This document shows, one piece after another, positions 60,401 through 63,390 of a DNA stretch of 64,000 nucleotides; position 1 is the stretch's first letter, and each line of letters starts with the position of its first letter. Made by a program: the position numbers and the translations under genes. Under the pieces are notes generated by a model. The model saw nothing but the letters and a program-made list of their open reading frames with translations. It had not been told where the DNA came from and ran no database searches. The stretch is from Ectocarpus siliculosus (taxonomy: Eukaryota; Sar; Phaeophyceae; Ectocarpales; Ectocarpaceae). The stretch covers positions 2,532,658 to 2,596,657 of the forward strand of contig FN649743.1 of the NCBI GenBank assembly GCA_000310025.1, in the 5' to 3' direction.

Positions 60401-63390
60401 GCCGCTCGTCCTCCAAAACATTTACACACTCCCACAAAACTCCCGCAAAGCTTCATCCACCCCGTAGCATAAAAACAACTCCAAGGCGCAACCTTCGCAT
60501 CCCACTCCAGACAATTTTCGGGGCACGCCAAATCGAAAAAGTCTCACCTGTAGCGACGACGATCGCCTTGGCGTGGCCACCGCAAGCGAGGGTCCCCATG
60601 AACACCATGTTCTTGCACTCCGCCAGCGGAATCGCTCTGTGCCCGTGGCTCACGGGTCCGGCGCCCTCTAGTCGACCGTCTCCACTCGCCACCGCGCCAA
60701 GGGCGGCGGTTACCTTCTCGCGTGCGTGGCCCTCTCCGGTCAAGCTTAGGGTTAGGGTTAGGTTTAGGGTTAGGGTTTTAGGATTAGGGTTAGGGTTAGG
60801 ATTAGGGTTAGGGTTGGTTGCGTTGGGGTTTAGGGTTAGGATTGGGGTCTCCGGTCACGCCAACCAAACCAATCACCAGCGTCGCCGACATGAAAACGAG
60901 ACGACATGCTATCTCAGATATTTCGTAGATACAACGAGGGCGAAGGGTTTACGTTGTCTATTTAGGCGACGTGGGTTCGGGGCTTTCTGGCGGTGCTGCT
61001 ATCTAAGCGGGCTGGCTCTGGGTCACCTTCATGGTACAGTGTGTAGCGCTGGACGCGACGACAGCCGATATGACCCCAGGCATACACCAGAAACAAAGAC
61101 GCATACGGGTTTGGGGTACGCCGCACGAACGCAATAAGCGCTGGTTTAGCGATGACGAGAAACGTATATATATAAAAATACGGCTGCTGCTGTGCTGCGA
61201 TGACACTTGCACCCTTCAAACCAAAGTATGTATTCCAAATCGCCATACAACGCGCGCTCCTAGCGACCAAAACTAAACCATTAGACCAGCCAGCTCTGAG
61301 CGGTCTGTAGCAAATAGCGCACCTCGACTCGTCGACAAACAGGTCGGCAGCCTGAACCAAGCGGCAGTCTGCAGGGATGCGGTCGCCGCTCTTTACCAGC
61401 ACCACGTCTCCGGGGACAAGCTCTCGCGCCATCACGTCCGAAGCCTGATCGCAGCAAGACGCGCACCATGACAACAACGCCAGCGCACCGTCAATGTTTT
61501 GTCAAGACGTGAAATCCTCTGTAGTCCACCAGGCATCTCTCGAGCAAATCTGTACTCATATTTCGGTTAAGCCTGCGCCGAACACGTAAGCCCGCATACC
61601 TCTAGACGCAACGCCAGAGGTCACCCAAGCCTACGCCTCGAGCAACGAAAATGTAGTACCCCACCTTGCCTCCACGAAAGCAGGTAGCGTGCGGAGGGAG
61701 GAGCGTGGTCAGCGCCTGCAGTGACTGCTCCGAGCGGTACTCTTGCACGAACGCCACCTGCGATGTATTTCAGGGCGGAGGGAGGCATCAAGAGAAACGC
61801 GTCCGTCGAGGGTGAACACAACACAAGGCAAGACTGCTTCCACAAAACCGTCTTGTACTGGGGATGCGCAAAACACAACGGTCCGAGAGGCACACCGGTG
61901 CGACATGCCCCCAACGCGTCCCTTGGCCGTGGGTAACGTGTATCGCACAATAGGGTCGACCTACCCGAGTTTCTTTCAAGCGGAAGCGGTTCATCAGAGC
62001 TGCAGAGGCTGCGCACACAGAAAACGGCGTGCTTGTTTACTCTTGCTGGTGGTGGTGGAAATAGCGGCGTGTTTGTGCAGAATGCGGCACAACCATTGGA
62101 AAAAATGGTAGGCAGAACAAGTCACATGCATTCAGCGCCCTTGTACGCATAGCACATTCTGCCGGGTAGGAGCAGCTCCAATCCGTGGTCGCACAGAAGG
62201 CTTCCCAACCCTGAGAGCCCCCCTACAACGGTGCATGCCTTCGATTTCAACGCCAGAAGAATGTAGCACTCTCTTCCGTCAAAGTGTACACATGAGCTGT
62301 TTGACAGCGCTTGCCACAGTACCAGCCAGAGGATTGGAAGAGCAAAAAATATACCCCACGCGCAAATAATACGCCGTTCATCTACGCTTCGCAGCAGGAC
62401 CACCTCAACGAAGAGGAAGATGCGACCAAAAGCTGCGCGTTGGCTGCACTTACCGTTGCCACGATCGTGACGGCCATGAAAATGCTGACGGCGTCGTCGT
62501 ACTGCTTGATGAGAAGGCTCAGCACCGCCGAACCCAACAGAAGCAGGATGAGCGGGTCTTTGAACTGTTCCAGGTATCTCTTGTACAGCGGGTCCTTTGT
62601 AGTGAGACAGCAGACGCAACGACAGACCCAGACAGACGAAGCACCGAGCACGGGGAGAGGTGCAGAGTATGGGATGAGCGCGGCCGAAACTTGAACGTCA
62701 CACCCCGGACACCCTCCGCCGCAAGAAGTCAGCACCTCTCTGCTGCCGTAAGTCGGCGCCTCATCAGACAACCCCTTTCCCCACCGCCACGCGTACACTG
62801 CTGTAGTGTAGCCACCGCGGCTGCTGCGGTGGAGGCGATGAATATGCATATCGCCATCCTGGATACAGATATGGCGATTTTGTTCGCCGGCACCGCCGAC
62901 TTATCCAGCACGTTGCAGTCAGCACGGCCCTTCAAAACGGCATCAAGTACAAGCTGGGCTGTACGCGGCAGAGTGTTTGTATGCGGTTGTATTTGCTCGA
63001 GAGAGGACTCAGGACTCTCACCTCCTCTTCCTTCTCCAACTCATTTGGAGGAACAAGCCCCTGTCGCACCGACACTTCCAGCAGGCTGAGACCGCTTTGT
63101 ACGTCCACTCCGAGATGACGCCCTACCTGAGAGTATCAGCAAGCGAGAGAGAAAGAGAGAGAGAGGCGGACAACAAAAGCACGCGCACCGGAACCTCAGT
63201 AGCACTGCTGTCTCCTTGTGTCATCAGGTAACCGGTATGTTCTTGGCGTTTTCGGGCAATCGGAGAGACACACCATCGTTTTTGTTCGTTCTTTCGACAG
63301 ACCACGATGACAGACGCTGCCTTCTTACAACACAAGCGAGAGCACATTTACCTCTTCAGGTGCTAGCCGAGCGGCCGAGTCGGTGTCCAT
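51461..63390 (-). CDS. PMR1-like: SPCA/PMR1-type P-type Ca2+/Mn2+-transporting ATPase (complete)
   Basis: Pumps Ca2+ and Mn2+ into the Golgi or secretory pathway. Twenty-three exons: 63390-63352, 63126-63022, 62594-62454, 61757-61665, 61444-61323, 60744-60548, 60178-60024, 59727-59606, 59297-59186, 58661-58471, 57961-57883, 57578-57498, 57138-56960, 56339-56228, 55873-55727, 54977-54903, 54601-54542, 54198-54079, 53591-53472, 53083-52883, 52445-52287, 51984-51829, 51520-51461; all phases match, 941 residues, normal for SPCA. Motifs: QYDDAVSI (M2), [16 protein letters not shown] and TGE (actuator), AAIPEGLP with Ca2+ ligand E305, phosphorylation site D347 in [27 protein letters not shown] (D661, D665), and M6 ligands N755 and D759 in [16 protein letters not shown]750, just before this helix, matches the yeast Pmr1 Gln linked to Mn2+ selectivity. 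There is no second-site M5 Glu pattern as in SERCA and no EF hand. Three introns start with GC. Confidence 0.96.
51767..51790. repeat. (GA)n microsatellite in the last ATPase intron
   Basis: About eleven GA dinucleotides on the plus strand, CT on the gene strand, shortly after the exon 22 donor. Confidence 0.9.
54077..54078 (-). other. GC-type 5' splice site, ATPase intron 18
   Basis: Exon 18 ends GGGAAG and the intron begins GCGAGA. Joining here gives [13 protein letters not shown], which aligns without gap to the conserved P-type sequence EEGKxIxxNIKNF. The only nearby GT donor would insert eight extra residues. Confidence 0.85.
54901..54902 (-). other. GC-type 5' splice site, ATPase intron 16
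   Basis: Exon 16 ends CTCCAG and the intron begins GCGAGA, followed at once by an in-frame TAG. Joining here gives [17 protein letters not shown], matching the family spacing exactly; no usable GT donor lies between the conserved RHK motif and the stop. Confidence 0.88.
56346..56397. repeat. (GGGGGAC)n minisatellite forming the 3' end of ATPase intron 13
   Basis: About seven copies of a 7-bp unit, GTCCCCC on the gene strand. It ends six bases before the acceptor CCAAAAG of exon 14 and supplies the pyrimidine-rich tract. Confidence 0.92.
56752..56917. repeat. Direct duplication of about 55 bp within ATPase intron 13
   Basis: CGAGTCCCACGCCYGACGAT begins both copies (56752-56805 and 56862-56917); both continue CCAGCCGACTC-like and end CACAYAAA. 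Confidence 0.85.
58469..58470 (-). other. GC-type 5' splice site, ATPase intron 10
   Basis: Exon 10 ends CTCAAG and the intron begins GCGAGT. Only this junction keeps phase with exon 11 (phase 2), which carries the conserved GQPTE motif. The surrounding loop is poorly conserved, so support is by phase and consensus rather than homology. Confidence 0.7.
60280..60470. repeat. Tandem duplication of about 80-90 bp in ATPase intron 6
   Basis: Copies at 60280-60360 and 60379-60470 share GGGTGAACCCTCAT, ACGTTGCGCCGCTCGTCCTC, TTTACACACTCCCA and AAAGCTTC; the second has a short insertion. Confidence 0.9.
60745..60846. repeat. Interstitial telomere-type array abutting the exon 6 acceptor of the ATPase
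   Basis: About fourteen TTAGGG-type units with TTTAGGG, GATTAGGG and other variants. On the gene strand it reads CCCTAA repeats, and the last unit CCCTAAG forms the AG acceptor directly before the exon 6 codons for SLTGE. Confidence 0.95.

What the first reader, a model, noticed from the sequence alone, without database searches (positions are those of the whole stretch)
60745..60846. Telomere-type repeats act as branch point, pyrimidine tract and 3' splice site of an intron
The gene-strand CCCTAA array ends exactly in the AG acceptor before the conserved SLTGE codons. Each unit contains CTAAC, a good branch-point match, plus a CCC pyrimidine block, so the array supplies many candidate branch points. 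An interstitial telomeric insertion, perhaps from break repair, may have replaced the original intron end while keeping splicing.
Basis: partly seen in the sequence, partly recalled or inferred. Interest (0 to 1): 0.74.

Follow-up and report, generated by a model that had tools for sequence, protein, structure and literature searches.

The report
Telomere-like repeats forming an intron's end
In a calcium-pump gene of an unidentified eukaryote, a stretch of about 100 bases of worn telomere-like repeats sits exactly at the end of an intron and appears to supply the signals for cutting that intron out, probably after landing there as an insertion.

Summary
The minus strand carries an ATP2C1-type Ca2+-ATPase gene. 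Its intron 5 (61322..60745) ends in a degenerate C-strand telomeric array (60847..60746; 13 differences from perfect TTAGGG in 102 nt). Of 28 AGs in the intron, only the last reads into SLTGE without a stop. New here: a 10-bp direct repeat, TGACCGGAGA, borders the array, in exon 6 (60742..60733) and just upstream (60857..60848). It looks like a target-site duplication (11 of 20,000 random placements do as well). Insert plus duplication is 115 nt, a frameshift unless spliced out. The nearest upstream AG (60849) leads to a stop, so the branch point is expected inside the AG-free array, which has seven CTAAY sites within 60 nt of the acceptor. Against this: the acceptor is weak (third lowest of 19), the pyrimidine tract is only average, intron 13 ends in a non-telomeric array without a flanking repeat, so plain expansion remains a rival, and in yeast sense-strand CCCTAA arrays in an intron lower mRNA (PMC9272169). 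No RNA, relatives or species name were available.

The parts
53000..63390 (-). SPCA/ATP2C1-type Ca2+-ATPase gene, 20 exons and 19 introns modelled (772 codons; the gene continues below 53000 and was not modelled there, so exon 20 is cut)
   Evidence: Pfam E1-E2_ATPase 1.2e-52 and others; ATP2C1 8iww_A, E 5.4e-218, query residues 5-771
61323..61444 (-). exon 5, ending ...FVDES plus the AG of a split Ser codon
   Evidence: alignment
60745..61322 (-). intron 5, 578 nt, GTGCGC...CCCTAAG, phase 2
60746..60847 (-). degenerate C-strand telomeric array (CCCTAA)n, 102 nt, without any AG; seven CTAAY sites within 60 nt of the acceptor, nine in all
60745..60746 (-). AG acceptor abutting the array
60733..60742 (-). 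downstream copy of direct repeat TGACCGGAGA (exon 6, codons for LTGE); 14-nt extended form 60746-60733
60848..60857 (-). upstream copy of direct repeat TGACCGGAGA; 14-nt extended form 60861-60848 has GG where the live acceptor has AG
60548..60744 (-). exon 6, starting C TTG ACC GGA GAG (S/LTGE)

Best explanation
A short interstitial telomeric sequence, C-strand in the sense direction, was inserted at the intron 5/exon 6 border of an SPCA gene with a 10-14 bp duplication of the site (likely repair of a staggered break with telomeric repeats). The duplication left a second copy of the exon 6 start, with its acceptor, downstream of the array. Splicing now uses that copy. The array is AG-free and full of CTAAY, so it provides the branch point and the AG-exclusion zone, and its last CCCTAA runs into the acceptor AG. 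The upstream copy, no longer constrained, has decayed (GG in place of AG). Shown: array, acceptor by reading frame, flanking repeat, AG-free zone. Inferred: insertion event, telomerase or break repair, branch point inside the array, order of events.
For: The gene is intact and colinear across the array, with DES|SLTGE gapless against ATP2C1. Of 28 AGs in intron 5 only the array-end AG reads into SLTGE without a stop. The 10-bp direct repeat lies at the array edges; 11 of 20,000 random placements of a 103-nt block have 10 bp or more within 5 nt of the edges. Insert plus duplication is 115 nt, not a multiple of 3. The upstream copy differs at 2 of 14 sites and the array at 13 of 102, a similar rate on small numbers. 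The AG-free zone of 102 nt coincides with the array and is the second longest of 19 introns. Among heptamers with T at 4 and A at 6, 10-60 nt from the acceptor, the best match to TACTAAC (6 of 7) is in this intron and no other intron exceeds 5 of 7. By the AG-exclusion rule (PMC7317903, passages) a branch point upstream of 60849 would favour that AG, which gives a stop. Target-site duplication is a recorded outcome of ITS insertion: 4 of 25 primate and 6 of 130 rodent loci (PMC2246262, passages), 3 of 66 in horse (PMC7215372, passages).
Against: No transcript and no empty site in a relative was available. The flanking repeat is only 10 bp exact, and the extension to 14 was chosen after seeing it. 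If a match anywhere 25-250 nt upstream is allowed, 1.3% of random sites reach 10 bp, and intron 8 has a 9-bp match. The same 10-mer also occurs in the MTGD motif of this gene (54579..54570). The context of the upstream copy makes a poor acceptor (-10.2; the 19 real ones go down to -7.2), which weakens the idea that it once was the acceptor. The present acceptor is itself weak: third lowest of 19, and 42.5% of 348 decoy AGs score as high (matrix of 18 introns). Intron 13 shows that an array at an intron end can exist without a flanking repeat. In yeast, 60 CCCTAA units in sense inside a reporter intron abolish mature mRNA and shorter arrays (25-38 cloned) lower it, and this C-orientation is more harmful than TTAGGG in sense (PMC9272169, passages); that speaks against such arrays helping splicing, though they were longer and lay in an intron with its own signals.
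Confidence: 0.5

Rival explanations
1. The array grew in place by replication slippage from a C-rich, CTAAC-containing intron end, without telomerase, a break or an insertion; intron ends tolerate AG-free pyrimidine-rich repeats. The 10-bp flanking repeat is chance.
For: Intron 13 of the same gene ends in (CCCCCGT)7.4, 5 nt from its acceptor, with no flanking repeat (longest 3). 3 of 9 tandem arrays in the gene lie within 15 nt of an acceptor, P = 0.004 (the 15-nt limit was chosen after seeing the positions). The two array introns have the two longest AG-free tails of 19.
Against: The unit is the common telomere hexamer rather than an arbitrary C/T-rich one. The flanking repeat sits at the array edges at P about 5.5e-4.
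Confidence: 0.28
2. The array is only a spacer: the old branch point upstream of it (for example TCAT or TGAT with A at 60891 or 60873) is still used and the spliceosome reaches across the array to the acceptor.
For: Branch-like TCAT and TGAT lie 31 and 13 nt upstream of 60860, and 47 nt there are AG-free. The other introns of this gene show no strong CTRAY signal (2 of 18 within 60 nt), so the host may not need CTAAC.
Against: AG at 60849 would be met first and gives a stop after four residues, RPQS; the branch would lie 128 or 146 nt from the acceptor.
Confidence: 0.15
3. The array is kept as a telomere-protein or telo-box-like regulatory DNA element or G-quadruplex, and its place at the acceptor is incidental.
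For: Telo boxes are more frequent in 5' UTRs and the first two introns of plant genes (PMC3022908, passages); interstitial repeats bind telomere proteins (PMC6410037, passages).
Against: It lies in intron 5, inside the gene, exactly abutting the acceptor; no test of binding was possible.
Confidence: 0.03
4. Assembly error, or a broken gene in which the junction is not used.
For: No reads could be inspected, and telomeric repeats are prone to misjoining (general knowledge).
Against: Both flanks belong to one gene in the right order, strand, phase and spacing, and the 772 modelled codons are open with the P-type motifs.
Confidence: 0.04

Closest known systems
Short interstitial telomeric sequences inserted at double-strand breaks (primates, rodents, horse; PMC2246262, PMC7215372)
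   Same: Short degenerate TTAGGG array in unique DNA, with a short direct repeat at its edges; target duplication is a minority outcome in those surveys
   Different: None of the human arrays lay in exons, 31% lay in introns, and their effect on splicing was stated as yet to be tested (PMC7215372, passages). Here the array straddles an exon border and forms the acceptor region. Organism and host telomere repeat are not established here.
[quoted passage not shown] reviewed in PMC3443670)
   Same: Inserted DNA flanked by short direct repeats is removed by splicing
   Different: Here an existing intron was lengthened and given a new 3' end; no new intron arose. The review's text has 0 hits for 'telomer'.
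Introners (PMC9860276)
   Same: Duplicated target site can contribute splice-site nucleotides (passages)
   Different: No similar copies among introns in the window, no donor site carried, and the sequence is a tandem array rather than a transposon
Telo boxes of plant genes (PMC3022908)
   Same: Telomere motifs within genes
   Different: Short single motifs, mostly near 5' ends; the text has 0 hits for 'splic'
C/T-rich tandem repeats at intron ends, such as intron 13 of this gene
   Same: AG-free C-rich array next to an acceptor
   Different: Intron 13's unit is not telomeric and has no flanking direct repeat

Membership tests
Secretory-pathway Ca2+-ATPase (SPCA, ATP2C) | Best similarity to ATP2C rather than SERCA or Na/K-ATPase, with P-type motifs [23 protein letters not shown] (motif names recalled) | tested here: met
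   ATP2C1 E 5.4e-218 versus SERCA2 7.4e-114; motifs in the translation
Short interstitial telomeric sequence | Tandem telomeric repeat of the host at an internal site | tested here: inconclusive
   TTAGGG array at an internal site; the host telomere repeat is unknown because no genome is held. Ectocarpus has TTAGGG (PMC11541908, passages), but the host is not shown to be that.
ITS inserted at a double-strand break | Empty orthologous site showing one-step insertion | not testable with these tools
   No related eukaryote genome was at hand; an exact 20-base search of viral contigs and blastn of 1001 bases against phages gave nothing
ITS inserted at a double-strand break | Change of the target at the junction (deletion, addition or duplication) | tested here: inconclusive
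   10-bp exact direct repeat at the array edges, P about 5.5e-4; weaker control 1.3%. That it is a duplication needs the empty site.
Spliceosomal intron with canonical 3' end | GT-AG ends with phase and frame preserved | tested here: met
Spliceosomal intron with canonical 3' end | Branch point and strong pyrimidine tract upstream of AG | tested here: inconclusive
   CTAAY sites present; pyrimidine content median, acceptor score third lowest of 19, purine at -3
Introner | Multiple similar copies as introns | tested here: inconclusive
   blastn of the 19 introns against the window shows only within-intron duplications in introns 6, 10 and 13 and a short GA-repeat match of intron 1; the rest of the genome was not available

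The most novel reading that the evidence does not exclude
Telomeric C-strand DNA is a ready-made portable 3' splice module: each unit carries CTAAC, no unit contains AG, and a duplicated target site supplies the acceptor. An insertion across coding sequence in this orientation can therefore survive by being spliced out, making break repair with telomeric repeats a source of new intron ends. The opposite orientation, TTAGGG in sense, would scatter AGs before the acceptor and is predicted to fail there. (In yeast, arrays placed inside an intron showed the reverse orientation effect on mRNA, PMC9272169; my odds are lowered for that.)
Probability: 0.3. Interest if true: 0.72.

Novelty: new variant of a known kind. 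Interest (0 to 1): 0.5.

Why it matters
[quoted passage not shown] This locus is a natural candidate case with a sharp prediction: branch points inside the telomeric units. It would link break repair with telomeric DNA to the evolution of splice sites. Five searches of the open-licence library on telomeric repeats with splicing or intron terms and on ITS insertion listed 6 of 6, 11 of 11, 20 of 136, 12 of 36 and 15 of 382 papers; no listed title or abstract start describes a telomeric array serving as a 3' splice site. Most listed papers were not opened, so this is no proof of absence.

Tried and rejected
Identifying the organism failed. No whole genome is held; Rfam gave no match at gathering scores; Pfam gave none for the 10 ORFs tried of 29 ORFs of 170 codons or more outside the gene. 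TTAGGG repeats, GC of 54% and many mid-length introns would suit a brown alga such as Ectocarpus, but that is a guess from recall plus PMC11541908. The idea that the near-acceptor part of the array is better preserved by selection was tested: 5 of 68 versus 8 of 34 differences (Fisher P 0.029), but cut-offs at 34, 45, 50 and 60 nt gave 0.54, 0.38, 0.24 and 0.14, so I do not claim it. Zero AGs in the array is not by itself surprising for its composition (0.37 expected). The introner idea was set aside because no similar introns lie in the window. An exact search of viral contigs and blastn against phages for this locus found nothing. PMC8537989 (passages) has 0 hits for 'intron' and 'splic'; the listings served for orientation.

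Full report
Gene and junction. The minus strand from 63390 down past 53000 encodes a P-type Ca2+-ATPase. I modelled 20 exons and 19 introns by hand from open frames and homology, giving 772 open codons; the part below 53000 was not modelled. Pfam finds the cation ATPase domains, and the best solved relatives are ATP2C1, the secretory-pathway pump, at E 5.4e-218 against 7.4e-114 for SERCA2. Intron 5 spans 61322..60745. Exon 5 ends in GAC GAG TCG AG and exon 6 starts C TTG ACC GGA GAG, giving DESSLTGE, which aligns without a gap to ATP2C1. The acceptor AG is at 60746..60745. Intron 5 has 28 AGs; translated from each, only the one at 60745 reads into SLTGE without a stop.

The array. On the gene strand the last 102 nt before the acceptor G are CCCCAATCC...CCCTAACCCTAA. 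TRF scores it as TTAGGG x 17.2. A wrap-around alignment to perfect TTAGGG finds 13 differences in 102 nt, so it is old or was imperfect from the start. It is the only place in the window with two or more telomeric units in a row, and chance does not give it (mean 0.015 in 200 mononucleotide shuffles, four observed).

What surrounds it. TGACCGGAGA occurs at 60742..60733 in exon 6 and again at 60857..60848, touching the far edge of the array. Extended to 14 positions, [A/G]GC[T/G]TGACCGGAGA, 12 agree; I chose that extension after seeing it, because it takes in the acceptor. In 20,000 random placements of a block of the same size, 11 had a direct repeat of 10 bp or more with edges within 5 nt of the block. 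A looser control, any match 25-250 nt upstream of a random point, gives 10 bp or more in 1.3%; among the 19 acceptors of this gene intron 5 has the longest match (10) and intron 8 the next (9). The same 10-mer also occurs at 54579..54570, in the [10 protein letters not shown] codons of the same gene. I read the pair as a probable target-site duplication, not a certain one.

Why the placement matters. From one copy to the other is 115 nt, not a multiple of three. Starting translation at the position matching the upstream copy runs into a stop after 16 residues beyond the split Ser codon; AG 60849 gives RPQS and a stop. If the duplication is real, its target lies wholly (10 bp) or nearly wholly (12 of 14 nt) in exon 6, so the array broke coding sequence and survives because splicing removes it. 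The upstream copy has GG where the live acceptor has AG; with 47 AG-free nt above it, it could be the former acceptor. Against this, its context scores -10.2 on a small acceptor matrix, while the 19 real acceptors go down to -7.2.

How it probably works. The stretch from the last upstream AG (60849) to the acceptor is 102 nt without AG and is the array itself. Spliceosomes prefer the first AG after the branch point (PMC7317903, passages), so a branch point above 60849 should lead to the wrong AG; the branch point is expected inside the array. Seven CTAAY sites lie within 60 nt of the acceptor (at 7, 13, 25, 39, 45, 51 and 57 nt). Among heptamers with T at 4 and A at 6 lying 10-60 nt from the acceptor, the best match to TACTAAC is 6 of 7 in intron 5 and at most 5 of 7 in the others; only 2 of the other 18 introns have CT[AG]A[CT] within 60 nt, so the host does not appear to need this motif. 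As a pyrimidine tract the array is ordinary: 62% pyrimidine, the median of 19, and only 20% T. The acceptor has A at -3 (4 of 19 introns have a purine there; in human 96% have a pyrimidine, PMC7317903, passages). It scores third lowest of 19 in leave-one-out, and 42.5% of 348 decoy AGs do as well (matrix of 18 sequences). So the array suffices on paper but is not a strong acceptor; partial retention would not be surprising.

The rival of plain expansion. Intron 13 ends in (CCCCCGT)7.4 at 56396..56345, 5 nt before its acceptor, without a flanking repeat. Of 9 tandem arrays in the gene, 3 lie within 15 nt of an acceptor (introns 1, 5, 13), P = 0.004 by random placement in introns (limit chosen after seeing them). 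The 9 come from the 12 TRF rows: one row outside the gene was dropped and two pairs of rows of the same array were merged, while 55419-55439 and 55434-55455, which overlap in part, were kept apart. Introns 13 and 5 have the longest AG-free tails, 116 and 102 nt. This suggests that intron ends tolerate AG-free C/T-rich repeats whatever their origin. The telomeric unit and the flanking repeat favour insertion for intron 5, but an empty site is needed.

Prior work. ITS insertion at breaks with target duplication is recorded in 4 of 25 primate and 6 of 130 rodent loci (PMC2246262, passages) and 3 of 66 horse loci (PMC7215372, passages). [quoted passage not shown] In yeast, 60 CCCTAA units in sense within a reporter intron abolish mature mRNA, shorter arrays (25-38 cloned) and TTAGGG arrays lower it, and the C-orientation is the more harmful (PMC9272169, passages). 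That runs against a simple splice-friendly reading of CCCTAA in sense; those arrays are longer, purer and sit inside an intron with its own branch point. Intron gain at staggered breaks with short direct repeats, and the warning that such repeats also flank conserved introns, are in PMC3443670 (passages). Introners can draw splice sites from target duplications (PMC9860276, passages).

Limits. There is no RNA, no reads, no relative and no species. A brown alga is a guess: Ectocarpus telomeres are TTAGGG (PMC11541908, passages), and the window has 54% GC. That the acceptor is used rests on protein conservation and the stops met from the other AGs; that the branch point is in the array rests on the AG-exclusion argument; that it came by insertion rests on one 10-bp repeat and the telomeric unit.

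Noticed in passing
56345-56396: Intron 13 of the same gene ends in a perfect (CCCCCGT)7.4 array 5 nt from its acceptor, a second tandem array at an intron end, with no flanking direct repeat.
   Followed up: partly
58470, 54902, 54078 (first bases of introns 10, 16, 18, minus strand): Three of 19 modelled introns start with GC instead of GT, all reading GCGAG, which looks like a high share of GC-AG introns.
   Followed up: no
60276-60378 and 60375-60489; 58126-58257 and 58304-58437; 56752-56806 and 56862-56916: Introns 6, 10 and 13 each contain two diverged copies of a segment: 79% over 115 columns in intron 6 (91% over a 70-nt core), 70.5% over 139 in intron 10, 85.5% over 55 in intron 13. 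Local segment duplication seems frequent.
   Followed up: partly
54570-54579: The same 10-mer TGACCGGAGA encodes part of [10 protein letters not shown] in the same gene, a coincidence of similar codons that weakens the repeat's rarity.
   Followed up: yes
33868-34596: A long ACA-type trinucleotide run (33947-34063) gives an Asn-rich open frame on the + strand.
   Followed up: no
6210-8474 +, 11582-13378 -, 2575-3963 +: Open frames of 755, 599 and 463 codons (stop to stop) with no Pfam match at E 0.001.
   Followed up: no
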